From Micrococcus porci (GTDB taxonomy: Bacteria > Actinomycetota > Actinomycetes > Actinomycetales > Micrococcaceae), in assembly GCF_020097155.1 (NCBI RefSeq), contig NZ_CP083691.1:558001-622000 (forward strand): DNA of 64,000 nt, in the 5' to 3' direction. Shown here in pieces: positions 1 to 41,709 of this stretch. The notes under the pieces are model-generated. The model saw only the letters and a list, made by a program, of their open reading frames with translations, was not told where the DNA came from and did not search any database. Made by a program: the position numbers and the translations under genes. The stretch's first letter is position 1. Each line of letters begins with the position of its first letter.

Positions 1-1172
1 GCGCGGCCGCCGAGCAGCCCTGCGCGCTCCCGGATGTTCAGCACCCCGAACGAGCCGTCGGGCTGCGGCGCGTCCCGGGGTCGGCCGGGGTGCTGGGCGG
101 GGGACAGTTCACTGAGCACCCGCAGACGCACCTGCCCGGGGGACAGGGTGAAGAGCACCTGGCACGCGCCCCCGGCGGGGGCGTGCTTGACCACGTTGGT
201 GACCGCCTCGTGGGCGATCCGGTGGACGGTCGCGTCCACGTGGCGGGGCGCGCGCACCCCGTCCTGCTCCTGGACCTGCAGGTCGACGTCGAAGCCGTGC
301 GCGCGAAGCCGCGCGGCGGCGTCCCGGGCCGCCTGCGCGGAGGAGGTCACCAGCGCGGTGTCGAGAGCGTCCGGCGTGCCCGTGCCCCGGCGCGCGTCGA
401 CGTCGGTGCCGGCGTAGAGCACCTGGAGCAGGCCGCGCAGATTGGCGTGGGCCTGCCGGGCGACGTCGGCCACGGCGTCCGCCATCCGCTGCTGGGCGGC
501 GCGGTCGGGGGCGACGCGTATCGCCTGCGTCTGCATGGCCAGGACGGCGAGGTCCTGGGCCACCACGTCGTGCAGGTCGCGGGCCAGGCTGCGCCGGATG
601 TCGGCCGTGGCGCGGTCGCGCGCCTCCACGAGCTCGAGGTTGCGGCGGCGGGCGCGCTCCAGGGAGACCGACTCACGCCGCAGGAGCAGCCCCACGGCGG
701 TGCCCGCCAGTGCCGGCACCAGCATGAGCGGCAGCACGTCCAGGTGGTCGGGGCGGAGGGCGGCGGTGAGCACCGTGGTCGCCAGGAGGGTGCAGCTGAA
801 GACCACCAGGGGCGTCCTGGAGAGGTACAGGGCGGCGAACCCCATGGCCAGGCCCACGGTCACCACCGGCAGGGCGTAGAACCCCGAGGCCAGTGCGGAC
901 AGGACGAGCAGCGTGTAGCAGCCCATGAGGGCACGGGCGCCGGCGAGCGCCAGGACGAGCGTCACGCCGGTGCCGAGGGAGAAGAGGGCGTCGGCCGAGT
1001 CCAGCAGCCCGCCGCCCGGGCGGCCGGCCGCCCCGAGGGCCAGGTCCGCGGTCTCCCAGACCAGGAGGAGGCCACCGACCACGGCCAGCAGCCGGCGGAG
1101 GCGAGGGGAGAGCCGGCGCGGGGGTTCTGCCAGGAGGCCCCATGTGGCCCGGCCCCATGCTGGGACGTTCAC
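1..1172 (-). CDS. Membrane sensor histidine kinase (NarL/DesK type), cut by left window edge
   Basis: Sensor kinase expected to autophosphorylate and pass phosphate to the LuxR-type regulator encoded divergently at 1575. The reverse-strand frame gives about 150 residues of hydrophobic helices (roughly six membrane passes). A HisKA_3 dimerisation helix follows with RDLHDVVAQD (phosphoacceptor His near residue 201), then an HATPase with N box HEAVTN and a G box near GVLNIRERAGLLGG at the window edge. About 390 residues are visible and perhaps 35 C-terminal residues are missing. I chose the GTG at 1172; its ribosome site is weak. It lies 66 nt after the secreted-peptide gene on the same strand, so the two probably form an operon. 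A short-loop polytopic sensor domain beside a secreted peptide fits peptide sensing, but the ligand is inferred. Confidence 0.88.
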   Translation of the reverse strand, partial: MNVPAWGRATWGLLAEPPRRLSPRLRRLLAVVGGLLLVWETADLALGAAGRPGGGLLDSADALFSLGTGVTLVLALAGARALMGCYTLLVLSALASGFYALPVVTVGLAMGFAALYLSRTPLVVFSCTLLATTVLTAALRPDHLDVLPLMLVPALAGTAVGLLLRRESVSLERARRRNLELVEARDRATADIRRSLARDLHDVVAQDLAVLAMQTQAIRVAPDRAAQQRMADAVADVARQAHANLRGLLQVLYAGTDVDARRGTGTPDALDTALVTSSAQAARDAAARLRAHGFDVDLQVQEQDGVRAPRHVDATVHRIAHEAVTNVVKHAPAGGACQVLFTLSPGQVRLRVLSELSPAQHPGRPRDAPQPDGSFGVLNIRERAGLLGGR

Positions 1173-1238: not shown

Positions 1239-1454
1239 TCAGCAGGGGATGATGGGCACGCGGCGGCAGATGTACCGGTAGAAGTCCGGGGACGCCGTCC
1301 CCGGGTCGGAGATCCGCATGTCGTGCCCCAGGGGGGAGACGGCGGGGGCGGCCGAGGCGGCCGGGGCGCCGATCATCAGCGCCGGGAGGACGGCGACGGC
1401 GACGAGGGTGGAGCGGAGGCGGGCGGCGGGGCGGGGTGCGGTGGTGGTGGTCAT
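1239..1454 (-). CDS. Small secreted peptide (71 aa), candidate pheromone of the bacteriocin locus
   Basis: This encodes 71 residues with a clear Sec signal: basic start (RPAARLRS), hydrophobic core, and an ASA-type cleavage site near residue 35. The predicted mature peptide is about 36 residues. It ends in a Cys-bounded loop, CRRVPIIPC (Cys63 and the C-terminal Cys71), which could form a disulfide or thiolactone ring. I recognise no family. It sits between the histidine kinase and the response regulator of the circular-bacteriocin locus. Its promoter carries two copies of the same 11-bp motif found at the bacteriocin promoters. Role as inducing peptide is inferred; it could also be an accessory antimicrobial or an immunity-related peptide. 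The ATG at 1454 lies just where transcription should start, suggesting a leaderless message. Confidence 0.7.
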   Translation of the reverse strand: MTTTTAPRPAARLRSTLVAVAVLPALMIGAPAASAAPAVSPLGHDMRISDPGTASPDFYRYICRRVPIIPC

Positions 1455-1461
1455 GCCCTCG

Positions 1462-1527
1462 AGCCTGCCCGCCCGGGGGAGGGATCCGCGACGCCCGTTC
1501 CGGCACACCCGCCTGTCCTTTCGGGCA
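1462..1527 (-). promoter_or_regulatory. Promoter of secreted-peptide/kinase operon with two phased motif copies
   Basis: Reading the minus strand, TGCCCGAAAGG (1527-1517) is followed 22 bp later by TGCCGGAACGG (1505-1495). Then 27 nt separate it from a weak -10 box CAGGCT (1467-1462). The ATG begins at 1454, so the transcript would be leaderless. Repeat spacing and distance to -10 match the two bacteriocin promoters to within 1 nt. Confidence 0.65.
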
Positions 1528-1574: not shown

Positions 1575-2252
1575 ATGGACGCCATCACCGTGCTGATCGT
1601 GGAGGACGAGCCCCTCCTCACCCAGGCCTATACGATGATCCTCGAGGCCGACCCCGGGATACGGGTGGTCGGCACCGCCTCCGACGGCGCCGCCGGGGTG
1701 GCCGAGCACGAGCGCCTGCGACCCGACGTGGTCCTCATGGACCTGCGGATGCCGGTGCTGGACGGTGTGGAGGCCACGGGGCGGATCATGCGGGAGCACC
1801 CGGAGGCGAAGGTGCTCGTGGTGACGTCCATGACCACGGAGGACTACCTCTCCCCGGCGCTGGCCAACGGTGCCGCCGGCTACCTCACCAAGGACACGGA
1901 CGCCGAGGGTCTGGTCCGCGCCGTGCGGGCCGTGGAGGCCGGGACCATGGCCCTGGGCCCGAGCATCGCCCGGGAGGTGGTGGACCTGCTGCTGCGCTCG
2001 GGCGTCGCTCCGCGCACGGACGCCCCGGCGTCGCCCCGCGACCTGCCCGAGGCACTGACACCCCGGGAGCAGGACGTGCTGGAGCTGCTGGCCGAGGGCC
2101 TGACCAACCAGGAGATGGCCGCCCGTCTCTACGTGTCCGACTCCACGGTCAAGTCCAACCTCGCCCGCGTGATGCACAAGCTCGGGGCCAACAACCGCGT
2201 GCAGGCCCTCGTGCTGGGGGTCCGGGCCGGCCTCGTCTCGATCCCGGGCTGA
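1575..2252 (+). CDS. LuxR/NarL-family response regulator
   Basis: This 225-residue protein has an N-terminal receiver domain (residues 3-120) with acidic pocket E10/D11, phosphoacceptor Asp56 (VVLMD) and Lys106 (YLTKD). A NarL-type helix-turn-helix follows (about 158-220, LTPREQDVLELL and NQEMAARLYVSDSTVKSNL). It is divergent from the kinase and immediately upstream of the circular-bacteriocin genes. The direct-repeat arrays at 2368-2443 and 4896-4906 are its most plausible binding sites, because tandem phased repeats before a poor -35 region are typical for NarL-type activators. The ATG at 1575 is supported by a leaderless promoter. Target assignment is inferred. Confidence 0.92.
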   Translation: MDAITVLIVEDEPLLTQAYTMILEADPGIRVVGTASDGAAGVAEHERLRPDVVLMDLRMPVLDGVEATGRIMREHPEAKVLVVTSMTTEDYLSPALANGAAGYLTKDTDAEGLVRAVRAVEAGTMALGPSIAREVVDLLLRSGVAPRTDAPASPRDLPEALTPREQDVLELLAEGLTNQEMAARLYVSDSTVKSNLARVMHKLGANNRVQALVLGVRAGLVSIPG

Positions 2253-2367: not shown

Positions 2368-2475
2368 TGCCCGAACGGGTGCGCCCCCTGCCCGAACGGC
2401 TCGGGGATCATGCCCGAACGGCACGCTGAGCCTGCCGGAACGGCTGTATTCGGGCTGTGTGGCCCTCCGTAGATT
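2368..2475 (+). promoter_or_regulatory. Four phased 11-bp direct repeats and promoter of the bacteriocin precursor
   Basis: Copies lie at 2368-2378, 2389-2399 and 2411-2421 (all TGCCCGAACGG) and at 2433-2443 (TGCCGGAACGG), spaced 21, 22 and 22 bp. This places them on one face of the helix. After the last copy, 26 nt lead to TAGATT (2470-2475), a good -10 box without a recognisable -35. The leader to the ATG at 2557 is about 75 nt and ends in AAGGAG. The rest of the 2253-2556 gap holds only the terminator described above and one reverse-oriented variant (2280-2270). Confidence 0.8.
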
Positions 2476-2556
2476 CAGTGGTGTCGGAGCAGGAGAGATC
2501 CCGCGGCCGACGACCACCACACCGGATCCCGCGGGATCCCCATCGAAGGAGAACCC

Positions 2557-2847
2557 ATGTCCACCTCGCTCGTCGCCCTCGACTCCGCCGCCACCCGCCG
2601 CTCCGTCGGTGTCGCCGCCTCCCTGTCCGTGATCGGCCTGATCGTCGGCGGTGTCACCCTCGCCTGGGTGGCCGGCTCGCTCGGCATCTCCGCCTCCGCC
2701 GCCTCCCAGATCGTCAACGCCGTCCAGGTCGGAGGCCTGGCCCTGACCCTCGTGGGCGCCGCGTTCGGCTTCGGCGTGGGCTCCGCCTTCGTGGCCACCG
2801 TCCGCTGGTACATCCTCCGCAAGGGCAAGGCCGTCGCCATCGCCTGA
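2557..2847 (+). CDS. Circular bacteriocin precursor (circularin A/uberolysin type)
   Basis: This 96-residue precursor of a head-to-tail cyclised antimicrobial peptide has RBS AAGGAG before the ATG. Residues about 36-96 look like a mature circular bacteriocin: a 59-62 residue run of short Ala/Gly/Val/Ile-rich helices with LGISASAASQIVNAV near the start and a cationic segment RWYILRKGK before a hydrophobic end, AVAIA. The pattern LGIS-x-AA followed by I/V-V/D-N/I closely resembles circularin A and amylocyclicin as I remember them. The leader (about 35 residues) is long, as in amylocyclicin. The exact cyclisation residues are not certain; Leu35, Ala36, Trp37 or Val38 joined to Ala96 are candidates. 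The following genes (ATPase, DUF95 protein, polytopic proteins) are the partners expected for such peptides. Confidence 0.85.
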   Translation: MSTSLVALDSAATRRSVGVAASLSVIGLIVGGVTLAWVAGSLGISASAASQIVNAVQVGGLALTLVGAAFGFGVGSAFVATVRWYILRKGKAVAIA

Positions 2848-2864
2848 GCCCGACCCGGTGCGCC

Positions 2865-2902
2865 CCGGCCGGCCCGTCCGCCTCGGCGGGCGGGCCGGCC
2901 GG
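2865..2902 (+). terminator. Strong hairpin between precursor and downstream genes
   Basis: An 18-bp stem (2865-2882 with 2885-2902) carries only one G-T wobble and lies 17 nt after the precursor stop. It likely acts as a partial terminator or 3'-end stabiliser, giving excess precursor mRNA over transporter and maturation mRNA. The ATPase gene starts 60 nt later. Confidence 0.7.
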
Positions 2903-2962
2903 ACCGGGCGTCCCGCCCGGACGCCGCGACCCCTCCGCCCCTCCACCGAACGGAACCTCCCC

Positions 2963-3640
2963 ATGAACCCCGCCGCCCCGGCGCCGGCCATCCGCCTCGC
3001 GGACGTGAGCGCCGCCTACGACCGCCGTCGCCCCGTGTTCACGGGCGCGGACCTCGTCATCGACGGGCCGGGCCTGGTCCGCGTCCACGGCCGCAACGGC
3101 GGCGGCAAGTCCACTCTCATCGAGCTGGTGTCCGGCTACCTGCGCCCGTCGGACGGACAGGTGCGGATCGGCGGCCTGCCCGCCCACGACCCCCGTGCCC
3201 ATGAGCGGCGCCGCGTGTGCCGCACCGAGCCCGCCCTCTACCCCCTGATGGACGTGCACGACCACGTGGTGTTCGCCAGCCGGTGGGCCGGTGCGGACCC
3301 CGCGGAGGGACTGGCTCGGGCCGAGCGCTACGGGCTCGGCCCGTGGATGCACGCTCCCGCCCAGACCCTCTCCACCGGCAACCGCCGCCGCCTCTGGATC
3401 GTCCAGTGCACGGTCGGCGCCTTCGACACGGTGGTCCTCGACGAGCCGTTCAACGGGCTCGACGACGAGTCCTCCGCCGTCCTCGCCGCTGAGCTGGCCG
3501 CCTGGGCGCGCACCCGCTGCGTCGTCCTCATCTGCCACCTGCCCCCGCCGGGGCTGGCCTTCGACCGGGTGGTCCGCTGGCCCCCGGGACAGGCCGCCGC
3601 CGACCCCGCACCCCCCGCCGACCCAGGAGTCCGACCATGA
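2963..3640 (+). CDS. ABC transporter ATP-binding protein of the circular bacteriocin locus
   Basis: This 225-aa nucleotide-binding subunit has Walker A GRNGGGKST, a Q-loop region replaced by RTEPALYP, signature LSTGNRRRL, Walker B VVLDEPFNGLDD and H-loop ICHLP. It should energise export or immunity together with the membrane proteins encoded just downstream. I start at ATG 2963 (MNPAAPAP) rather than the in-frame 2858 codon, because the latter would translate the hairpin. The last 4 nt overlap the next gene (ATGA), implying coupled translation. It corresponds in role to the CirD/As-48D ATPases of known clusters by context. Confidence 0.88.
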   Translation: MNPAAPAPAIRLADVSAAYDRRRPVFTGADLVIDGPGLVRVHGRNGGGKSTLIELVSGYLRPSDGQVRIGGLPAHDPRAHERRRVCRTEPALYPLMDVHDHVVFASRWAGADPAEGLARAERYGLGPWMHAPAQTLSTGNRRRLWIVQCTVGAFDTVVLDEPFNGLDDESSAVLAAELAAWARTRCVVLICHLPPPGLAFDRVVRWPPGQAAADPAPPADPGVRP

Positions 3641-4266
3641 CCGCCGCTCTGGAGCGCGGGAGGCCCCTCGAGGGGGCCCCCGCGCGGCCCGCCACCCCAC
3701 ACCGTCGGGCCCGCTGCACCCCGCCGTGGCCCCGCCCCGGCGTCCTGGCCCTCGCTGCCGTGCTGGCTGCGCTCCTCGCCCTGGCCGGCGCCGCGGTCGG
3801 CCACTCCGCCGCCGGGTCCCTGCCGGCCGGGCTCCTGGGCGGCCCGCACACCTCCGACGCCGACTGGACGCTCACCGGGATCCTCGGCCGCAACCTCGGC
3901 GCCGCCCTGCTGGTCTTCGGCGGCGTGGTCACCGGCGGGGCCCTCACCGCCGTCACCCTGCCCCTCGTGGGCGTGTGGGTGGGGGCCACCCTCCGCCTCG
4001 CCCTCGACGCGGCAGGCTGGGAGGGCGCCGTCGGCGCCACGGTGCTCTACGCGCCCCTCGAGTTCGCGGGGGTGCTGCTGGCCGCCGTCGCCGGCCTGGT
4101 GCCCCTGGCCGCGGCGCTCCTGCGTCCCCGCGACGCCGACGTCGTCCCGGGCCCTCTCTCCCGGTATCTCGGCGCCCTGCCCTCGGCCTGCCTGCTGATC
4201 GGGTGCGCCCTCCTCCTCATCACCGCCGCCGGCGTCGTCGAGCACCTCGTGGTCTCGGGACGCTGA
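3637..4266 (+). CDS. SpoIIM/DUF95-family membrane protein
   Basis: The protein has 209 residues with about five membrane helices. The middle portion (NLGAALLVFGGVVTGGALT, then VGVWVGAT, then YAPLEFAGVLLAAVAGL) matches the DUF95/stage II sporulation protein M pattern, including a Pro-Leu-Glu-Phe motif within a helix. DUF95 proteins are a hallmark of circular bacteriocin clusters (CirC/As-48C type), where they are needed for production or immunity. A sporulation role is excluded by lineage. The first about 40 residues are Arg/Pro-rich and probably cytoplasmic. It overlaps the ATPase gene by 4 nt. Confidence 0.82.
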   Translation: MTAALERGRPLEGAPARPATPHRRARCTPPWPRPGVLALAAVLAALLALAGAAVGHSAAGSLPAGLLGGPHTSDADWTLTGILGRNLGAALLVFGGVVTGGALTAVTLPLVGVWVGATLRLALDAAGWEGAVGATVLYAPLEFAGVLLAAVAGLVPLAAALLRPRDADVVPGPLSRYLGALPSACLLIGCALLLITAAGVVEHLVVSGR

Positions 4267-4287
4267 CCCCCCAGGAAAGGACCTCCC

Positions 4288-4878
4288 ATGTCCAGCTCGT
4301 CCCCCGCCCTGCCCGTCACCGCCCTGCGCTTCCCCGAGCACTCCGCCCCCCGGCCCGGCGTGCCCGGCGCCGACGCCCCCGCCGGACCGCGCACCCGCGG
4401 CGCCGTCTCCTGGGGCGTGTACCTGGCCGTGTGCGCCGTCGCGGGCCTGCGCCTGCCGGCCATCCTCGAGGCCACCCGCGATCGCATCGCGGCGGAGGCC
4501 GGGGCCGACGCCGGCGGCGGCTTCGTGGACCTGGCGCTCGGCGTCACCGGCGTGCTCGCGGTGGTGGCGTTCGTCATCGTGTTCGCCCTGTACGTGTCCA
4601 CGGCCCGCCTCCTCGAGCGCCACACCCTGGCCCCCGCGCCGGGCTCGGTGGTCGGGGCGCACACCCTGGCGCTGGGCTGCACCCTGCTGTCCGTCCACGG
4701 GGCCGCCCTCCTCACGGGGACCCTGGCGCCGGTGCCCGTGCGCCTCGGGATCGCGGTGGCGGCCTCCGCGGCCGCGGTCGCCCTGCTGCGCGGCCAGCTC
4801 CCCACCGGATCGGCGCCCCGCCGGGTCGCCGCGGCCGCCACGGTGCTGCTGCTGTCCGCCCTGAGCGTCGCCTTCTGA
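4288..4878 (+). CDS. Polytopic membrane protein of bacteriocin locus, unknown family
   Basis: The 196-residue product begins with a Pro-rich tail of about 40 residues and then has five or six hydrophobic helices (for example VSWGVYLAVCAVAGL, GVTGVLAVVAFVIVFALYV and VAAAATVLLLSALSVAF). RBS AGGAAAGGA precedes the ATG. I recognise no domain. It lies 21 nt after the DUF95 gene and before a second internal promoter, so it belongs to the first transcriptional unit. It may be part of the export channel or a self-immunity protein. Known circular-bacteriocin immunity proteins are smaller and more basic, so this assignment is only a possibility. Confidence 0.8.
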   Translation: MSSSSPALPVTALRFPEHSAPRPGVPGADAPAGPRTRGAVSWGVYLAVCAVAGLRLPAILEATRDRIAAEAGADAGGGFVDLALGVTGVLAVVAFVIVFALYVSTARLLERHTLAPAPGSVVGAHTLALGCTLLSVHGAALLTGTLAPVPVRLGIAVAASAAAVALLRGQLPTGSAPRRVAAAATVLLLSALSVAF

Positions 4879-4895
4879 GGCCGGCGGCCCCGGGA

Positions 4896-4938
4896 TGCCC
4901 GAACGGGCGTAGTGACCGGCCGCGGCGCCCCCTAGATT
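4896..4938 (+). promoter_or_regulatory. Second motif-controlled promoter inside the bacteriocin locus
   Basis: TGCCCGAACGG (4896-4906) is followed by exactly 26 nt and then TAGATT (4933-4938) continuing CA. This is the same motif, distance and -10 as at the precursor promoter. A leader of about 45 nt ending in GAGAGGA reaches the ATG at 4986. A single full copy is present here; a degenerate partner may follow at 4913. Confidence 0.75.
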
Positions 4939-4985
4939 CACAACACCACCCCCGCCGGAGGACCCGGCCCGTCTGAGAGGACACC

Positions 4986-5393
4986 ATGCGTCTCACCACC
5001 ACCCATCTGCGCATCGCCCTGGGCGCCGTCGGCCTGCTGGGCCTCGGCGTCCTGGCCACCCTCCTCTGGGGCGGCGTGCTGCCGGCCGCCCTGAGCTCCA
5101 CCCAGCGGGGGATCGTCCTGACGGCGGCCGCGGTGGCGGCCGTGGCCCCGCTCCTGGGGGCCGTGCTGCCCGTCACCCGCATCGAGCGCCCGTCCAGCGC
5201 CGTGCTCCCCTCGTTGGGCCTGTTCGGCTTCGGCGTCCTGTTCACCGACGCCCTCGACGTGTTCCCGGTGCGGATCATCGTGATCCTCGGCGGCCTTCTG
5301 GCCCTGGCCGCCGTGGTCGCGGCCCTGTTCGGTGGACCCGAGCGCGCCGAGGCCGCCGAGGTGCCCGAGCGCACCGCCCATCGCTTCCACTGA
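4986..5393 (+). CDS. Small four-helix membrane protein, candidate immunity protein
   Basis: This 135-residue protein has four hydrophobic helices (LRIALGAVGLLGLGVLATLLW, IVLTAAAVAAVAPLLGAVL, VLPSLGLFGFGVLFTDAL, IIVILGGLLALAAVVAALF) and a short charged tail. RBS GAGAGGA precedes the ATG. No family is recognised. It has its own motif-controlled promoter, so it can be made together with but independently of the precursor. That would suit an immunity protein, and small polytopic proteins of similar layout protect producers of other circular bacteriocins. Function is inferred from position only. Confidence 0.78.
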   Translation: MRLTTTHLRIALGAVGLLGLGVLATLLWGGVLPAALSSTQRGIVLTAAAVAAVAPLLGAVLPVTRIERPSSAVLPSLGLFGFGVLFTDALDVFPVRIIVILGGLLALAAVVAALFGGPERAEAAEVPERTAHRFH

Positions 5394-5438
5394 CCGCACC
5401 GACCCCGGGCCGTGCGCCCCCGGACGGAGGACCCGCCC

Positions 5439-7094
5439 ATGAGCCCCACCCTCGCCGCCCCCGTCGGGACCGGCCATCACGCCGTCCCCCGGCCCGTCCC
5501 GGCCCCGGACGCGGGGTGGTCACGGGCCGCTCCCGCCCCGACTCCGCGCCGTCGCCTCAGCCTGCTGGCGGACCTGCGCTGCGCGGAGCTCCTCACCTCC
5601 CTGGGTCTGCGCATGTCCCTGCGCTCGGCGCGGCTGCTGCTCACGGTGGCGGCGGTCGCCGGGCCGGTGCTCCTGGTGCTCGCGGCGTTCGCCGGGGCAC
5701 GGTTCACGGCCCTGGTGCTGCCCCCGGGGGGGACCCTGGAGGCGCTGTCCGTGACCGTCCTGCCGCTGCTGTGCGGGCTGTCCCTGGGAGGTGTGATCCT
5801 GGCGGAGGCCGTGGGGCGGCAGCGGGAGACCGTCTCCGGCCATCCGAACATCCCGTACTTCCGCGCCCTGGACGTCCCGGCCACCCTGGTGCACGCGGTC
5901 TACGCGCTGCCCCGACTGCTCACGGCGGGCACCGTGTGGACGTGCGTGGGGGCGGGCGTTCTCGTGGCCTGCCTCAGCACGACGTCGGACGCCTCACCGT
6001 GGTGGGCGGCCGGCACGGCGCTGCTGGTCCTGCTGCCCGTGGCCCTCACGGCCGTCGCGTCGGCGGTGTCCCTGGCCGTCGCCTCCCGCCCACCCCGCGC
6101 CGGGGGGCCCGGGGTCCTGGCCGTCGGCGTCGGTGCCGCGGCGCTCGGTGCGTTCGCGGGGGCGGGGCTCGGCCGTCTGGCTGCGGGAGCGGCCAGCCGA
6201 CCCGGCCGGCGCCCGGGGGAGGTCTCACCGGTCACCGCGGTGCCGGGGCAGGAGCACGGAGTCGTGCTGCTGGCGGGCGGCGTCCTGCTCCTCGTCCTCG
6301 CCCTGGTCGGGGTGGCCGCCGGGCGCCGCCGCCTGCGTGCCCGCTCCTTCCCGCTCGCCGCGGCCGACCCCGTCCGCCTGCGCCGGCGGTCCGCGCCCGG
6401 CGGCGGTGCGCTCTCCTGGGCGTGGATGCTGTGGCGTCAGCGCCGAGGCTCCACCCGGTGGGCCGCGGAGCGTCGGGTGCTGTGGGGTCTGGCGCTCGTG
6501 GCCGGGGCCGCGGCCGGGGCCCGGGCCGTGGGCGTGGGCCGACTGGACGCCTCCCTGGCGGGGCTGCCGCACTCGCCGCTGCTGGAGGGCGACCCCGTGG
6601 GCGCCGTCCACACCGTGCTCGTGCTGGGCCTGACCATGGTGGGTGTGGCCCTCGGCGAGACCGCCCACGGCGACCTCGGGCGGCACCGCTTCGGCCGGCA
6701 CCTGCGCCAGGCTGTGGAGCTCGGCGCCCCGCTCGGGGTCACCGTGCGGGGCTGGATGCTGGCGTTGCTGGGTCCGGCCCTGCTGGGCGGGGTGTGTGCG
6801 GGGGTCGCTGCCGTGCTGGTGTGGCCGCCGGTCGGGGTGCTCGCCCCGGCCCTGGTGCTCGGCGGGGTGGGGGCCACGGTCCTGGCGGACCACCTCCTGC
6901 CCCCGCCGCGTACCGCGGACGGCGGAGTCGGGGAGGGGATGCTGACGGCCTTGCTGGCCCTGGTGCTGGCCTCCGGTCCTGCCGCCCTGCTGCTGGCGGG
7001 CGCCGGCCCCCTGGCGACGGCGGCCGGCGTCGCCCTCCTCCTCGTGGGCGCGGCGGCCTGCCTGGCCCGGCGTCTGTGCGTGCTGACCCCCTGA
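5439..7094 (+). CDS. Large polytopic membrane protein of the bacteriocin locus (CirB-like by size and context)
   Basis: This 551-residue protein has about 12 hydrophobic helices after a 45-residue Pro-rich N-terminus. A soluble RRR-rich loop lies mid-protein (about residues 300-330), and a second repeat-like half begins at VLGLTMVGVALGE. Start ATG 5439 is preceded by ACGGAGGA; the upstream GTG at 5412 lacks a ribosome site. No catalytic motif is visible. Circularin, uberolysin and AS-48 clusters each carry a polytopic protein of about this size required for maturation or secretion. This one is the only candidate here, possibly the permease for the ATPase or part of the cyclising machinery. 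It is the last gene of the locus; a weak hairpin (7099-7113) overlaps the convergent gene end. Confidence 0.8.
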   Translation: MSPTLAAPVGTGHHAVPRPVPAPDAGWSRAAPAPTPRRRLSLLADLRCAELLTSLGLRMSLRSARLLLTVAAVAGPVLLVLAAFAGARFTALVLPPGGTLEALSVTVLPLLCGLSLGGVILAEAVGRQRETVSGHPNIPYFRALDVPATLVHAVYALPRLLTAGTVWTCVGAGVLVACLSTTSDASPWWAAGTALLVLLPVALTAVASAVSLAVASRPPRAGGPGVLAVGVGAAALGAFAGAGLGRLAAGAASRPGRRPGEVSPVTAVPGQEHGVVLLAGGVLLLVLALVGVAAGRRRLRARSFPLAAADPVRLRRRSAPGGGALSWAWMLWRQRRGSTRWAAERRVLWGLALVAGAAAGARAVGVGRLDASLAGLPHSPLLEGDPVGAVHTVLVLGLTMVGVALGETAHGDLGRHRFGRHLRQAVELGAPLGVTVRGWMLALLGPALLGGVCAGVAAVLVWPPVGVLAPALVLGGVGATVLADHLLPPPRTADGGVGEGMLTALLALVLASGPAALLLAGAGPLATAAGVALLLVGAAACLARRLCVLTP

Positions 7095-7106: not shown

Positions 7107-10100
7107 TCAGCCCAGCGCCACCGTGACCTCACCGCCGGGCTCGAGCGTGTGCTCCCGGCCCGCGATGACCATCGGCACCTCGTGCCACATGCCCTCGCCG
7201 GCCGTCACCGTGACGTCCCGCTGGGTCATGTGGATGACCACGGGCTGCTGGTGGTACCGGATGGTGAACCGGGCGCCGGGCAGCTGGCGCGGCAGGCGCG
7301 GGTCCAGGCGGACGACGTCGTCGCGCGTCTCCAGCCCGGAGTAGCAGCGGATGACGGTGTCCACGGTGCCGGCCATCAGGCCCAGGTGGATGCCCTCGCG
7401 GGTGGTGCCGCCCTGGGTGTCGGACAGGTCGGACTCCAGCGCCTCGGTGAAGAGGTCCCAGGAGCGGTCCGGGTCCGTGCGGGCCGCCACCCAGGCGTGC
7501 ACCAGGCGGGACAGGGTGGAGCCGTGGGTGGAGCGCGCCTCGTAGTACTCCACGGTGCGCTCCAGCGCCTCCTGGTGCAGCTCGTAGCCCATGCGGCCAA
7601 GGATCTGCTCCAGCTCCGCACCGGAGAACAGGTAGGGGAGCATCAGGGTGTCGGCCTGCTTGGAGAGCTTGTACCGGTTGGTGGCGTCGCCCTCGGACTG
7701 CAGGATCAGGTCCATGCGGCCGATGTTCCCGTACTTGGCTCGGTAGCCCTCCCAGTCGAACTCGAGCAGGTCCTGGTAGCCCTCGAACTGCGCCAGGATG
7801 CCGGCCTCGGGGCCCTCGGTGAAGAACGGCACGGTGAGCTTGGCGGCGATCTCCTCCCAGCGGGCGATCTCCTCCTCGGTGACCTCCATGACCTCCGGCA
7901 GGCCGTCGTCGAGGGTGTCCAGCCAGCGCAGCAGGCGGGCGGTCTCGGAGAGCACCCAGGAGGTGAGCACGTTGGTGTACGCGTTGTTGCGCAGGCCGGA
8001 GCCGGGGGTCTCCGGGTAGCCGTCATGGAACTCGTCCGGGCCCATGACGCCGTGGATCTCGTACCGGCCGGTCTCCGCGTTGTGCAGGGTCATGGACGTG
8101 AAGAACCGGGAGATCTCGACGAGCATCTCGGCGGCGTAGTCCGAGATGAAGGAGGCGTCCTTGGTGATCTCGATGTACCTCAGCACGGAGTACGCGATGT
8201 CCAGGGAGACGTGGCGCTGGTTGTGGGAGTTGTCCGGCATCCACATGTGGGAGCGCGGGTTCCACAGCTCGGCGGGGGTCTCCTCGCGGCCGTCCGAGCC
8301 GGACTGCCACGGGTACATGGCGCCGGCCCAGCCCTCGGCCTGCGCGTTGGCCCGGGCCTCGTTGAGGCGGCGGTAGCGGTACATGAGGATGCCGCGGGTG
8401 ATCTCCGGGCGGCGCAGCGTGAGCATGGGGTAGACGAAGATCTCGTCCCAGAAGATGTGGCCGCGGTAGCCCTCGCCGTGCAGGCCGCGCGCCCCCACGG
8501 AGGCGTCCAGGTCGCGGCGCTTGCCGAACGCGGTCTGCAGCACGTGGTACGTGTGCAGGTTCAGGGCGAGCTGCTGGCGCAGGGAGGCGCCGTCCTTGCC
8601 CATCGTGGCGGCGGAGCCGACGGACGCGGAGCGCCCGGCCTCGAACACGGGCGCCTCGAACTCCTCGCCCTCGGCGAGCACGGCGGTGGAGCGGCGCTGG
8701 TTGCGGTGCTCCTCCGCGAGGTCGATCCGCACGGAGAAGCGGTCCCAGTTCATGCCCCAGCGCTGCTCGTGCAGGGTCAGCAGGTTGCGGAAGTTCTGGG
8801 CGCGCTGGACCTTCTTGATCGCCGACGCGTCGACGGAGGCGAGCGCGTGGTCGTGGGTGTTGGCCACGGCGGCGACCTTCTCCAGCACCAGCGGCACGTC
8901 CTGCTCGACGTGCAGGTGGATGTCCTGGCCCACCATGAGGTCCGAGCCCTCCACGGGGCGGCGGATCGGCTGGTGGTGGCCCTTGGGCGCCATCTGGCGG
9001 GTGCGCGCGGCGACGGCCACGTGCACGCGGGACTGGCTGGTGACGGTCTCCAGCAGGAGGGTCTCGCCGTCCACCTCGCGCGCCGCCACGGGCTCGAGGT
9101 GCTGGTTGGCGAGCGTGCGGTCGTCGGAGACGTTGAGGTTGGCCACGCGCCCGTCGACGAGCGTGCGCACCACCAGGTCGCCGGACCAGTTCTCCGCCTC
9201 CACGGTCAGCTCGATGGCGCCGAGGTGGCGGTCCGCGAGGGACTGGAACTGGCGGGTGTGCAGGGTGGTGATGCGGCCCTGGGCGTCCTCGAAGCGCATG
9301 GAGCGGGAGAGCACGCCGCGGCGCAGATCCATCTCCTGGTGGTAGTCCAGGAGCGTCTCCTCGCCCGGGATCAGCGGCCTGCCGCCCGCGGGGATGACCT
9401 GCAGCGGGGTCCAGTCCTGCATGTTCACCATGTGCTCGGTCTCCACCTGGCGCCCCTGCACCATGGAGGTCAGCCGGTTGAAGACGCCGGCCAGGTAGGT
9501 GCCGGGGTAGTGCACGTCGGAGATCCGGGTGCCGGGGATGGAGCCGCGGGTGCCCCAGTAGCCGTTGGCGAGCGTGCAGAGGACCTCGCGGGTGCCCTCG
9601 GTGGCGGGGTCGAAGTGGTCCCAGCGCAGCACCCAGGCGGCGTCGAACGGTGCGGTGGTGCGGTCGGCCAGGCGGAGGGTGCCGTAGTCCTTCACCACGA
9701 TGTGCGCGCCGGCGTCCTTGAGGCGGGGCTTGCCGCCCTCGCCGTGCTCGCGGTCCACGCCGATCACGAGGCCGAACCGGCCGTCCGCGGCGGCCTTCAC
9801 GCCGGAGACGGCGTCCTCGAGGACCATCGCGTCCGCGACGTCGACGCCGAGCTCGCGGGCGGCCTCCCAGAACATGGCGGGGTCGGGCTTGCCGGGCAGG
9901 CCGCGCTCGATCGCGGTGTGCCCGTCCACGATCACGGGGAAGTAGTCCAGGACGCCGCCGGCGGTGAGGACGGCGCGGGAGTTCTTGGAGGAGGTCACCA
10001 GGGCCACGGGCACGCCCTTGTCGCGCAGCTTCTCCAGCAGGTCGGTGGCCTCGGGGAACACGCGCACGCCGTCCCGCTCCAGGACCTTCTCGAAGAAGCC

Positions 10101-10484
10101 CTGCTTGCGCTCGGCCAGGGCGAGCACGGTCAGGTCGACGGGGGCGTCGGCGTCGTCGACCTCCGGCACGGTGAGCCCGCGGGAGGCGAAGAAGGCGCGC
10201 ACGCCGTCCTCGCGGGGGCGCCCGTCCACGTGGTGCAGGTAGTCGGCCTCCGGGTCGAAGGGGCGCAGGACCCCCGGGTCGGCGGCGACGGCGGCCCGGT
10301 TGGCGTCCAGCGCGCCGACGGCGGGCAGGGCCTGGTCGAAGAGCTCCTTCCACGCCGCGGCGTGCACGCCGGCGGTGTCCGTGATGACGCCGTCCATGTC
10401 GAAGATCACCGCGCGGTAGCGGCGGAGGCGGTGGCGGCGGGCGTTGCGGTCCTGCTGGTCCACGGGGGTGAGGGTCTGCGTCAC
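7107..10484 (-). CDS. HAD beta-phosphoglucomutase / glycoside hydrolase family 65 phosphorylase fusion
   Basis: This 1125-residue bifunctional enzyme starts with a HAD domain (1 to about 250): FDMDGVITDT with Asp29 nucleophile and Asp31 acid/base, VTSSK, and LEDAVSGVKAA. The GH65 part (about 290-1125) carries MYPWQSGSDGREE, MWMPDNSHNQRHVSLD and GVMGPDEFHDGYP, where Glu is the general acid. GH65 phosphorylases split an alpha-glucoside such as trehalose, kojibiose or maltose with phosphate to beta-glucose 1-phosphate. The HAD half would convert that to glucose 6-phosphate, so the fusion channels the product. In mycobacteria the two activities are on neighbouring genes. The substrate cannot be read from sequence. 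I chose GTG 10484; a possible -10 TAGGCT lies at 10593-10588. Confidence 0.88.
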   Translation of the reverse strand: MTQTLTPVDQQDRNARRHRLRRYRAVIFDMDGVITDTAGVHAAAWKELFDQALPAVGALDANRAAVAADPGVLRPFDPEADYLHHVDGRPREDGVRAFFASRGLTVPEVDDADAPVDLTVLALAERKQGFFEKVLERDGVRVFPEATDLLEKLRDKGVPVALVTSSKNSRAVLTAGGVLDYFPVIVDGHTAIERGLPGKPDPAMFWEAARELGVDVADAMVLEDAVSGVKAAADGRFGLVIGVDREHGEGGKPRLKDAGAHIVVKDYGTLRLADRTTAPFDAAWVLRWDHFDPATEGTREVLCTLANGYWGTRGSIPGTRISDVHYPGTYLAGVFNRLTSMVQGRQVETEHMVNMQDWTPLQVIPAGGRPLIPGEETLLDYHQEMDLRRGVLSRSMRFEDAQGRITTLHTRQFQSLADRHLGAIELTVEAENWSGDLVVRTLVDGRVANLNVSDDRTLANQHLEPVAAREVDGETLLLETVTSQSRVHVAVAARTRQMAPKGHHQPIRRPVEGSDLMVGQDIHLHVEQDVPLVLEKVAAVANTHDHALASVDASAIKKVQRAQNFRNLLTLHEQRWGMNWDRFSVRIDLAEEHRNQRRSTAVLAEGEEFEAPVFEAGRSASVGSAATMGKDGASLRQQLALNLHTYHVLQTAFGKRRDLDASVGARGLHGEGYRGHIFWDEIFVYPMLTLRRPEITRGILMYRYRRLNEARANAQAEGWAGAMYPWQSGSDGREETPAELWNPRSHMWMPDNSHNQRHVSLDIAYSVLRYIEITKDASFISDYAAEMLVEISRFFTSMTLHNAETGRYEIHGVMGPDEFHDGYPETPGSGLRNNAYTNVLTSWVLSETARLLRWLDTLDDGLPEVMEVTEEEIARWEEIAAKLTVPFFTEGPEAGILAQFEGYQDLLEFDWEGYRAKYGNIGRMDLILQSEGDATNRYKLSKQADTLMLPYLFSGAELEQILGRMGYELHQEALERTVEYYEARSTHGSTLSRLVHAWVAARTDPDRSWDLFTEALESDLSDTQGGTTREGIHLGLMAGTVDTVIRCYSGLETRDDVVRLDPRLPRQLPGARFTIRYHQQPVVIHMTQRDVTVTAGEGMWHEVPMVIAGREHTLEPGGEVTVALG

Positions 10485-10813
10485 GCGAGGAAGGCCTTTG
10501 CTCTCGGAGGCGGGGTGTGCGGGCGCGTCGGACGCGCCGGAACGGCGGTTCCGGGGCGCCGTCGCCGGCCGGGAATGCTTGAGGCCCAGCCTACGGGCGG
10601 GGCGGCGCCCGCGGGGAAGGGGTCGGGGGCCGGTGGGGGTGAGTCCGGTCACGGGACCGGTGTGCAGGAATGACGACGCCGGCGGGACCGGGCGGCCGGA
10701 TCTGCGTTGCCAGGGAATTGCCAGCCTTCACCCCGGGTCCCTCCATGTCCGGGTCGTACGGTGGAACCACTTCATCGAGGTGCGAGCGATGAAGGTGCGA
10801 GTGATGACAGATC

Positions 10814-40050: not shown

Positions 40051-41709
40051 ATGTCGCAGAACTCCGAGGCGCCGGGCCGCCTCTCGGCAGGCCACCTCAT
40101 CGTCAAGACGCTCGAGTCCCACGGTGTGCGGCGCGTGTACTCGGTGCCCGGTGAGTCCTACCTGGACGTCCTGGACGGGCTGCACGACTCCGCGCAGATC
40201 GAGAACGTCGTCTGCCGCCACGAGGGCGGCGCCACCTACATGGCCGAGGCCGACGGCAAGATGAACGAGGTCCCCGGCATCGCGATGGTGACCCGCGGCC
40301 CCGGCGCCGCGAACGCCCACGTGGGCCTGCACACCGCGTGGCAGGACTCCACCGCGATGGTCCTGTTCGTTGGCCTGATCCCGTTCGAGCACCGCGACCG
40401 CGAGGCCTTCCAGGAGTTCGACCCGCACGCGTGGTTCGACTCCGGCGCCAAGCGCGTGATGGTCCTGGACCACCCGGAGCGCGCCTCCGAGATCGTGGCC
40501 GAGGCCATGTTCGCCGCCGCGTCCGGCCGCCCGGGCCCCGTCGTCGTCGGCCTGCCGGAGGACATCATCCGCGTGGAGGTGGACGCGCACCTGCACCCGC
40601 AGATCCCCGTGGCCCCCGGCGGCATGACCGTGGAGGACTGGAAGTCCCTGCACGCCGCGCTCAAGGAGTCCCAGAAGCCCCTGTTCATCACCGGCGGCAA
40701 CGACTGGACCGACGCCGGCGCCGAGGCGCTGACCTCCTGGCTCGAGGACCACAAGATCCCCGCCGCGGCCGAGTGGCGCTGCGAGGGCACCGTGCCGTTC
40801 TCCTCCCCGTCCTACGTGGGGCCCATCGGCTACGGCCGCCCCGACTTCACGCAGCACCTGCTGGAGGAGACGGACCTGATCGTGTTCGTCGGGACCGTGC
40901 CGGGCGACGTCGTCACCGACGGCTTCACCATCCGCCAGAACTGGGACAAGAAGAACTTCCTGGTCACCATCGACCCGTCCCTGCGCGGCCGCTCCGGCCC
41001 CGTCTCCCACCAGATCGTGGCGAAGCCGGACGTGTTCGTGCGCGACCTGGTCCGCATGGACCTCGCCGTGAAGCCGGAGTGGGAGGCGTGGACCTCCCGC
41101 CTGCGCGGCCAGCAGGAGGAGTTCGCGGCGCTGCCCGCCGCCGAACCGGGTGACGGCCAGGCGAAGATGGCCACCCTCATGGCCACCCTCATGCCGAAGC
41201 TGCCGAAGGACTCGATGATCTCCCTCGGCGCCGGCGAGCACACCAACTGGGCCCACCGCTACTTCCCCACCGAGGGCTACCGCGCCATGATCTCGGCCCG
41301 CAACGGCTCCATGGGCTACTCGGTGCCGGGCGCCGTGGCCGCGTCGCTGAACTTCCCGGACCGCACCGTGGTGACCATCGCCGGCGACGGCGAGTTCCTC
41401 ATGAACGGCCAGGAGCTGGCGACCGCCGCGCAGTACGGCGCCACGCCCCTCGTGATCGTCATGGACAACCAGGAGTACGGCACCATCCGCACCCATCAGG
41501 AGCGCGAGTACCCCGAGCGCGTCTCCGGCACCCAGCTGAAGAACCCCGACTTCGCCGCCATGGCCGAGGCGTTCGGCGGCTTCGGGGTGCGCGTGGAGCA
41601 GGACGCGGACGTGCCGGCGGCCGTGGACGCGGCGCTCAAGGCCGTCCAGGAGGAGGGCCGGTTCGCGCTCATCCACCTGATCGTGGAGCAGCGCGTCAAG
41701 GCCTACTGA
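40051..41709 (+). CDS. Thiamine pyrophosphate-dependent enzyme (acetolactate synthase-like)
   Basis: This 552-residue protein has the three-domain layout of the POX/AHAS family: a PYR domain with catalytic Glu in VPGESYLDVLDGL, a central domain, and a PP domain with GDGEFLMNGQELATAAQYG (Mg-TPP motif GDG-x24-N). It lacks the FAD-binding signature of true acetolactate synthase, and no small subunit gene is adjacent, so it may be a decarboxylase or a catabolic enzyme. RBS CAGGAG precedes ATG 40051; a -10 TAGCCT lies at 39952-39957. Confidence 0.85.
   Translation: MSQNSEAPGRLSAGHLIVKTLESHGVRRVYSVPGESYLDVLDGLHDSAQIENVVCRHEGGATYMAEADGKMNEVPGIAMVTRGPGAANAHVGLHTAWQDSTAMVLFVGLIPFEHRDREAFQEFDPHAWFDSGAKRVMVLDHPERASEIVAEAMFAAASGRPGPVVVGLPEDIIRVEVDAHLHPQIPVAPGGMTVEDWKSLHAALKESQKPLFITGGNDWTDAGAEALTSWLEDHKIPAAAEWRCEGTVPFSSPSYVGPIGYGRPDFTQHLLEETDLIVFVGTVPGDVVTDGFTIRQNWDKKNFLVTIDPSLRGRSGPVSHQIVAKPDVFVRDLVRMDLAVKPEWEAWTSRLRGQQEEFAALPAAEPGDGQAKMATLMATLMPKLPKDSMISLGAGEHTNWAHRYFPTEGYRAMISARNGSMGYSVPGAVAASLNFPDRTVVTIAGDGEFLMNGQELATAAQYGATPLVIVMDNQEYGTIRTHQEREYPERVSGTQLKNPDFAAMAEAFGGFGVRVEQDADVPAAVDAALKAVQEEGRFALIHLIVEQRVKAY

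What the first reader, a model, noticed from the sequence alone, without database searches (positions are those of the whole stretch)
2368..7094. Complete circular (head-to-tail cyclised) bacteriocin locus in a Micrococcus-like actinobacterium
Seen: a 96-residue precursor whose last about 60 residues match the circularin A/uberolysin/amylocyclicin pattern (LGISASAAS start, hydrophobic helices, RWYILRKGK patch, AVAIA end), then an ABC ATPase, a DUF95/SpoIIM membrane protein, two small membrane proteins and a 551-residue polytopic protein in one direction. Established: ATPase, DUF95 protein and a large polytopic protein accompany every studied circular bacteriocin (cir, ubl, as-48). Inference: the locus makes a new circular bacteriocin. 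I know of no characterised one from Micrococcus.
Basis: partly seen in the sequence, partly recalled or inferred. Interest (0 to 1): 0.95.

Follow-up and report, generated by a model that had tools for sequence, protein, structure and literature searches.

The report
Circular bacteriocin locus with own pheromone
A Micrococcus genome carries the genes for a predicted ring-shaped antibacterial peptide and, right beside them, a sensor kinase, a response regulator and a small two-cysteine peptide that would likely be the signal switching it on, the sort of trigger that a 2018 review said was still unidentified for this class.

Summary
Window 2557-2847 encodes a 96-aa precursor above Pfam's class IId cut-off (PF09221), with 26 homologs besides its own. 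ATPase, SpoIIM/DUF95-like, two small membrane and 551-aa polytopic genes follow; the whole set recurs beside the precursor in four other Micrococcaceae loci, in other orders. Alignment to solved NKR-5-3B and AS-48 puts the predicted ring at V38-A96 (cyclic mass 5715.6 Da). Cyclisation and killing are untested; AlphaFold did not show the saposin fold.

At 1-2252 lie a sensor kinase, a LuxR-type response regulator and, between them, a 71-aa secreted-looking peptide ending C-RRVPIIP-C. Such a peptide lies in 8 of 8 bacteriocin loci with this divergent pair; over all loci scanned, in 33 of 38 divergent pairs, against 2 of 19 other regulators. Only the two cysteines (and the start) are invariant. 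Boxes TGCCSGAACGG lie upstream of the peptide, bacA and 135/551-aa genes; box-N26-TAGATTC occurs genome-wide only at the last two. I conclude: a new circular bacteriocin driven by an autoinducing Cys-loop peptide (predicted). The bacteriocin is a new member of a known kind; the signal family looks new.

The parts
1..1172 (-). sensor histidine kinase (HisKA_3), 412 aa; its 3' end lies 67 bases left of the window; four hydrophobic segments in residues 28-164
   Evidence: PF07730 42.6 bits; segments; full frame in L008
1239..1454 (-). 71-aa secreted-looking peptide, predicted pheromone precursor, ends C-RRVPIIP-C
   Evidence: no Pfam match
1242..1268 (-). C-terminal two-cysteine loop (residues 63-71), predicted signal core
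   Evidence: only M1 and the two Cys are invariant among 26 peptides chosen for alignment
1495..1527 (-). two operator-like boxes, TGCCGGAACGG (1495-1505) and TGCCCGAAAGG (1517-1527, one mismatch), 22 bp apart, upstream of the peptide gene
1575..2252 (+). NarL/LuxR-type response regulator, 225 aa
   Evidence: PF00072 and PF00196 above cut-off
2368..2443 (+). four operator-like boxes TGCCSGAACGG at 2368, 2389, 2411, 2433 (21-22 bp apart)
2470..2476 (+). TAGATTC, predicted -10 region of bacA, 26 nt after the last box
2557..2847 (+). circular bacteriocin precursor (bacA here), 96 aa, predicted leader 1-37
   Evidence: PF09221 26.8 bits, above cut-off
2668..2844 (+). predicted circular core V38-A96, 59 aa, cyclic average mass 5715.6 Da
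   Evidence: residue 1 of NKR-5-3B and of AS-48 falls on V38 by alignment; mass
2963..3640 (+). ABC transporter ATPase, 225 aa
   Evidence: PF00005 57.5 bits; 70% identity in L009
3637..4266 (+). SpoIIM/DUF95-like membrane protein, 209 aa
   Evidence: PF01944 below cut-off here (15.0 bits); 12 of 19 family members match at E <= 1e-3
4288..4878 (+). 196-aa membrane protein of the cluster
   Evidence: conserved in relatives
4896..4939 (+). operator-like box TGCCCGAACGG, 26 nt, TAGATTC: second predicted promoter of the cluster
4986..5393 (+). 135-aa membrane protein with four hydrophobic segments
5439..7094 (+). 551-aa polytopic membrane protein, about 10 segments
   Evidence: no Pfam match at E <= 0.1 for 10 of 10 members scanned

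Best explanation
This locus encodes a class IId circular-bacteriocin-type precursor with an ABC ATPase, a SpoIIM/DUF95-like protein and three further membrane proteins likely serving its maturation, export and immunity, and beside them a sensor kinase, a response regulator and an intervening small two-cysteine peptide that is predicted to be the secreted pheromone switching the bacteriocin genes on. Shown by sequence: the gene set, its conservation across genera, the two-cysteine peptide between divergent kinase and regulator genes, and the shared TGCCSGAACGG boxes. Inferred: the peptide leaves by Sec, is cut and closed into a disulfide loop (C63-C71), and accumulates with cell density; the loop binds the membrane part of the kinase; the phosphorylated regulator binds the tandem boxes at the peptide promoter (positive feedback), the bacA promoter and the promoter before the 135/551-aa genes. 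Inferred for the product: the leader is removed after W37, V38 and A96 are ligated head to tail, the ring is exported, and it permeabilises membranes of competing Gram-positive bacteria while the producer is protected by the membrane proteins.
For: Bacteriocin: PF09221 above cut-off; 26 homologs besides its own, all matching TIGR03651 at E <= 0.01; NKR-5-3B E 7.3e-5 and AS-48 E 0.0014 by profile; DUF95 family 12 of 19 at E <= 1e-3; all six genes recur beside bacA in L009, L006, L010 and L032, three gene orders in all. Signal: peptide in 8 of 8 bacteriocin loci with a divergent kinase/regulator pair; 33 of 38 divergent pairs against 2 of 19 other regulators in the loci scanned; in nine of these intervals 0-6 of 500 dinucleotide shuffles had such an ORF; loop variable, only the Cys kept. 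Circuit: TGCCSGAACGG-N20..32-TAGATTC matches genome-wide only at the two cluster promoters of this genome and once, at bacA, in G001, each with exactly 26 nt; reversed-pattern control 0. A box pair 22 bp apart stands in the same register at bacA and at the peptide gene (6 of 200 shuffles reach the score).
Against: TIGR03651 and SpoIIM scores of the window's own proteins are below the curated cut-offs. AlphaFold models (pLDDT 65.8 for the precursor; 86.2, pTM 0.51, for residues 36-96) are helical without a saposin-like PDB match. The box alone is not exclusive: TGCCCGAACGG occurs 7 times in the genome, 4 in this cluster and 3 elsewhere, with 4 matches of the reversed control. A shared bacA/peptide element was convincing only in the window: of seven loci compared, five were no better than shuffles (15 to 140 of 200) and the L035 match was GC-rich; L012 was not compared. 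Five of 38 divergent pairs, all genus g13, have no such peptide, and three of the 44 divergent rows held a second, doubtful hit to the same rule. At 14 of 23 bacA loci no regulator was found nearby. In L012 the pair lies about 4 kb from a weak bacA that the profile search did not report. The rule was written after seeing the first peptides. Nothing has been measured.
Confidence: 0.72

Rival explanations
1. The cluster makes a circular bacteriocin, but the two-cysteine peptide is not a signal: it is a second antimicrobial or an accessory secreted peptide, and the kinase senses something else, such as envelope stress or redox.
For: Small Cys-loop peptides can be antimicrobial (general knowledge); the kinase's best NCBIfam matches are UhpB, NarX, MadS and LiaS types, all far below their cut-offs, so no ligand can be read from it.
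Against: The same peptide type sits between divergent kinase/regulator genes near gcvT and gcvP in nine Micrococcus genomes (among them G001, whose bacteriocin cluster is elsewhere) and in nine further loci without a circular bacteriocin; its loop differs between species; its own promoter carries the box pair found at bacA.
Confidence: 0.2
2. The 59-residue core is exported without ring closure and acts as a linear, leaderless-like helical bacteriocin.
For: AlphaFold of the linear chain is helical with no saposin match; leaderless bacteriocins exist in Actinomycetota (PMC11580447, passages).
Against: An N-terminal extension of about 20-35 residues or more in every homolog aligned, V38 falling on residue 1 of two solved circular bacteriocins, and a DUF95-like partner, a protein that PMC11580447 calls class-defining for circular bacteriocins.
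Confidence: 0.07
3. The cluster is silent or decayed.
For: Only 2 of 11 Micrococcus genomes have it.
Against: All frames are open; near-identical precursors (P0001, 98%) and signal peptides (P0031, 99%) exist on other contigs; the promoter layout is kept in G001.
Confidence: 0.05

Closest known systems
Circularin A / uberolysin / enterocin NKR-5-3B / AS-48 circular bacteriocins (PF09221, TIGR03651)
   Same: core with the LGIS-type start, hydrophobic helices, cationic patch; ABC ATPase, SpoIIM/DUF95-like and large polytopic partners; residue 1 of NKR-5-3B and AS-48 falls on V38
   Different: below the TIGR03651 cut-off; AWVAGSLGIS junction nearly invariant; core ends in Ala; large polytopic protein without Pfam match; two-cysteine peptide module beside it
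Predicted AS-48-type cluster of Micrococcus luteus (PMC5695211, passages)
   Same: genus and compound class
   Different: grouped there with AS-48, its contig ending after the AS-48D1 homologue; its sequence was not compared here
Kinase/regulator genes near butyrivibriocin AR10, circularin, uberolysin and NKR-5-3B clusters (PMC6131525, passages)
   Same: two-component genes beside circular bacteriocin genes; the review already sees hints of three-component quorum sensing
   Different: activators there not identified; here a candidate peptide lies between kinase and regulator
ComQXPA quorum sensing of Bacillus (recalled, not from a call)
   Same: peptide plus multi-pass kinase plus LuxR-type regulator
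   Different: no further gene between kinase and regulator here; two-cysteine loop; divergent layout; ComQ was not searched for elsewhere
Three-component bacteriocin regulation in Firmicutes (plantaricin, blp, agr types; recalled)
   Same: peptide, kinase, regulator and tandem direct repeats about two helical turns apart upstream of regulated genes
   Different: LuxR/GerE-type regulator instead of LytTR; apparent Sec-type front instead of a double-glycine leader

Membership tests
class IId circular bacteriocins (PF09221) | precursor matches PF09221 at its gathering score | tested here: met
   26.8 against 23.6 bits
class IId circular bacteriocins (PF09221) | SpoIIM/DUF95 partner gene | tested here: met
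   met through homologs: the window protein itself is below cut-off (15.0 against 26.9 bits); of 19 aligned homologs (this one included; a 20th, L063, left out as overlong) 12 match PF01944 at E <= 1e-3 and 16 at E <= 1
class IId circular bacteriocins (PF09221) | ABC ATPase and large polytopic partner | tested here: met
   PF00005; relatives of the 551-aa protein in 10 further bacA loci
class IId circular bacteriocins (PF09221) | saposin-like four- to five-helix fold | tested here: inconclusive
   AlphaFold of the linear chain, pLDDT 86.2, pTM 0.51, helical, no PDB match; the ring bond cannot be modelled here
class IId circular bacteriocins (PF09221) | head-to-tail peptide bond and killing activity | not testable with these tools
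   needs mass spectrometry and assay
NCBIfam subfamily TIGR03651 (circularin A/uberolysin) | score at or above the curated cut-off | tested here: not met
   25.2 against 30.7 bits, E 1.5e-5; window plus 26 homologs all match at E <= 0.01, best 2.2e-8. Related to, not filed in, this subfamily
three-component peptide quorum sensing | peptide gene linked to a kinase/regulator pair | tested here: met
   8 of 8 bacteriocin loci with the divergent pair; 33 of 38 divergent pairs scanned
three-component peptide quorum sensing | export signal on the peptide | tested here: inconclusive
   hydrophobic segment 17-35; no signal-peptide predictor at hand, cleavage site read by eye
three-component peptide quorum sensing | common operator at signal gene and output genes | tested here: met
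   window only; not shown in the other loci compared
three-component peptide quorum sensing | peptide activates the kinase | not testable with these tools
   bench test proposed
agr type (AgrBDCA; features recalled) | LytTR regulator and one-cysteine thiolactone peptide | tested here: not met
   regulator is GerE/LuxR type; two cysteines

The most novel reading that the evidence does not exclude
A new family of peptide pheromones in Actinomycetota: Sec-exported precursors whose last residues form a C-x4-7-C loop, each read by its own divergently encoded kinase and LuxR-type regulator. In Micrococcaceae one branch is a core system near gcvT/gcvP whose loop differs from species to species, and other branches have been recruited to switch on circular bacteriocins, giving the missing activator of a circular-bacteriocin cluster.
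Probability: 0.6. Interest if true: 0.86.

Novelty: new variant of a known kind. Interest (0 to 1): 0.73.

Why it matters
A 2018 review of circular bacteriocins says their regulation is largely unknown, that kinase and regulator genes near some clusters hint at three-component quorum sensing, and that the activators have not been identified (PMC6131525, passages). Here a candidate activator, its receptor, its regulator, its DNA boxes and the output lie in about 7 kb, so the question can be tested with one synthetic peptide and one reporter. If true, it would also give Micrococcus and relatives a peptide language between cells, and a handle to switch on silent bacteriocin clusters.

Tried and rejected
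Single-sequence search of the precursor against the PDB found only a chance hit; profiles worked. Structure route: precursor model too poor, its single PDB hit meaningless; the core model gave no PDB, VIA or viral match. PDB search with the DUF95 profile: none at E <= 1. Pfam on the 551-aa family: none at E <= 0.1 in 10 of 10 scanned (L034, cut by its contig end, was left out). Plasmid records: no bacA match at E <= 1e-5. Rfam over the window: none at gathering score. Peptide-family searches in the protein database scored only the 7,992 and 7,989 candidates sharing most words and reached close relatives without informative names. The three TGCCCGAACGG sites elsewhere in the genome (L064-L066) had no relative of any gene of this locus within the stretch fetched. 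Idea that the operator is shared in every lineage: rejected. Idea that the peptide module belongs to bacteriocins alone: rejected. Idea that other regulators never have such a peptide: corrected; an upstream-only scan gave 0 of 17, a two-sided scan 2 of 19.
Full report
OBSERVATION. The precursor (2557-2847) passes Pfam's gathering score for class IId circular bacteriocins (PF09221, 26.8 against 23.6 bits) and falls short of NCBIfam's subfamily cut-off (TIGR03651, 25.2 against 30.7 bits). A database search gave 27 proteins at E <= 1e-3, one of them (P0018) a shorter call of the window's own gene; where a source names the organism it is an actinobacterium (Micrococcus sp., Nesterenkonia, Arthrobacter, Nocardioides, Mycetocola, Glycomyces), the rest are unnamed. 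The window protein and the 26 others (alignment A1) all match TIGR03651 at E <= 0.01. Conservation begins at AWVAGSLGIS and runs to the C-terminus; the front is variable.

CORE. A profile of 37 sequences matches the solved circular bacteriocins NKR-5-3B (E 7.3e-5) and AS-48 (E 0.0014 and 0.0053 for its two sequences). Residue 4 of NKR-5-3B lies on S41 and residue 2 of AS-48 on A39, so residue 1 of both falls on V38. The predicted ring is V38-A96, 59 residues, cyclic average mass 5715.6 Da, pI of the linear chain 11.1. The VAGALG start of circularin A (recalled) agrees. A 37-residue leader is within the 2 to 48 residues given for the class (PMC6131525). AlphaFold did not decide the fold: precursor pLDDT 65.8; residues 36-96 pLDDT 86.2, pTM 0.51, helical, no PDB match. 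The linear chain lacks the ring bond, so I count this as inconclusive.

PARTNERS. The ATPase, SpoIIM/DUF95-like, 196-aa, 135-aa and 551-aa proteins all recur beside bacA in G001 (L009), Arthrobacter ulcerisalmonis (L006), G036 (L010) and G341 (L032). The order is A-ATPase-DUF95-196-135-551 in the window, A-135-551-ATPase-DUF95-196 in L009 and A-DUF95-196-135-551-ATPase in L006, L010 and L032. Other bacA loci show a part of the set. Of 19 aligned DUF95-like proteins (a twentieth, L063, left out), 12 match SpoIIM at E <= 1e-3, best 2.3e-9. The group is patchy: 17 of 395 genomes of the family, 3 of 396 of the order and 2 of 394 of the class, each count including this genome and the samples overlapping; 2 of 11 Micrococcus genomes. 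The flanking gene (7107-10652) is in 11 of 11 Micrococcus genomes and lies beside the cluster in G001 too.

THE MISSING HALF: A SIGNAL MODULE. Left of bacA lie a LuxR-type regulator (1575-2252) and, divergent from it, a HisKA_3 kinase (1-1172 and 67 bases beyond). Between them, on the kinase strand, is a 71-aa ORF with a hydrophobic front and the end RYICRRVPIIPC. In the other bacteriocin loci with a divergent kinase/regulator pair a small ORF of the same make-up lies at the same place, with another loop: CKFFRSC (L009), CLLLRLC (L006 and L032), CYLFGC (L010), CGFLFLRWC (L035), CSFLFLRWC (L036), CKLAGWLCPK (L012). That is 8 of 8. L012 is the weakest: its bacA was found by the single sequence (E 2.4e-4) but not reported by the profile, and the pair lies about 4 kb away. 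L034 ends inside the regulator and could not be judged; 14 further bacA loci of 23 showed no regulator at E <= 0.01 in the stretch fetched. In dinucleotide shuffles of nine such intervals (these eight and L061) an ORF meeting the rule turned up in 0 to 6 of 500. The rule was made after seeing the first peptides, so the wider survey is the better test.

SURVEY. I scanned regulator paralogs from Micrococcus genomes and the 30 best loci returned for the A. ulcerisalmonis regulator in 245 family genomes, of which 201 had a match. On a two-sided scan, after removing six repeated loci from 44 divergent rows (repeats checked), 33 of 38 divergent pairs have the peptide (32 of 37 if L101 and L102, identical in sequence from two genomes, count once); the five without are all from genus g13. 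Three divergent rows (L012, L113, L115) held a second, doubtful hit. Among other arrangements 2 of 19 distinct regulators (21 rows) have one, the same peptide in G005 and G007. Nine of the 33 are orthologs near gcvT and gcvP in nine of 11 Micrococcus genomes, this one included (L078); two of these nine were missed by an earlier form of the scan (L075; L076). In an alignment of 26 peptides that I chose, only M1 and the two cysteines are invariant. The regulator tree puts the bacteriocin-linked regulators in at least three lineages and the gcv-linked ones in one well-supported clade. Nine further peptide loci, one of them only 3.9 kb long, had no match to the bacteriocin or DUF95 profiles. So the module is wider than its link with bacteriocins.

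CIRCUIT. TGCCSGAACGG stands four times upstream of bacA (2368, 2389, 2411, 2433), once before the 135-aa gene (4896) and, on the other strand, once exactly and once with one mismatch upstream of the peptide gene (5' ends 1505, 1527). With one mismatch allowed, the 64-kb window has 9 matches of TGCCCGAACGG against 2.69 expected, none of 100 shuffles reaching 9; a further one-mismatch site lies at the regulator's 3' side (2270) and one at 40381. In the whole genome the exact 11-mer occurs 7 times, 4 of them here, so the box alone is not exclusive. The box followed by 20-32 nt and TAGATTC was sought in both whole genomes: two matches here, one in G001, all in the cluster and all with exactly 26 nt; the reversed-pattern control gave none. 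At the peptide gene and at bacA two boxes 22 bp apart stand in the same register over 38 nt; 6 of 200 shuffles reach that score. For the six other lineages or loci compared the result was not significant (L009, L036, L006, L032, L010) or, in L035, lay in GC-rich sequence that I do not accept. Binding is inferred.

MECHANISM. Predicted: the peptide is exported, trimmed and oxidised to a loop, reports density through the kinase, and through the regulator raises its own gene and the two bacteriocin promoters; the precursor is cut after W37, closed from V38 to A96 and exported; the membrane proteins protect the producer.

KNOWN AND NEW. The bacteriocin is a new member of a known class. Earlier mining found 2 actinobacterial precursors against 6,925 from Firmicutes (PMC8534725, passages) and an AS-48-type cluster in M. 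luteus (PMC5695211, passages). A 2018 review says that kinase and regulator genes lie near some circular clusters, hinting at three-component quorum sensing, but that their activators are not identified (PMC6131525, passages); PMC7132975 also suggests quorum control (passages). The listings of searches (10 to 20 papers shown of 21 to 254 each) showed no report of such a peptide family in Actinomycetota; subscription papers and preprints are not held, so this is a limited negative.

Noticed in passing
L078:8310-8522 (G000:C1:87309-87521): The same genome has a second two-cysteine peptide (ends CTVFPFMCDER) between a divergent kinase and regulator near gcvT/gcvP; orthologs with other loops in eight further Micrococcus genomes.
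   Followed up: partly
L061:6523-12082 (G001:C24): A regulator of the window's clade, a kinase and a peptide (ends CRWLPTWCYGR) beside an ABC ATPase, a 510-aa protein and a weakly DUF3267-like (zincin) protein: possibly another signal-driven export or bacteriocin cluster.
   Followed up: partly
window 7107-10652 and G001:C127:18959-21886: Both Micrococcus clusters sit next to the same conserved gene, with different internal gene order: perhaps a shared insertion site.
   Followed up: partly
L037:9426-10019 (G247): Two tandem bacA-like precursors in one cluster.
   Followed up: no
L084:8084-8260 (G007) and L073:8893-9069 (G005): The same two-cysteine peptide (ends CLILNRCR) lies between co-directional regulator and kinase genes, in the opposite orientation.
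   Followed up: no
L100, L103, L105, L107, L111 (genus g13): Divergent kinase/regulator pairs of the same family without a recognisable two-cysteine peptide.
   Followed up: partly
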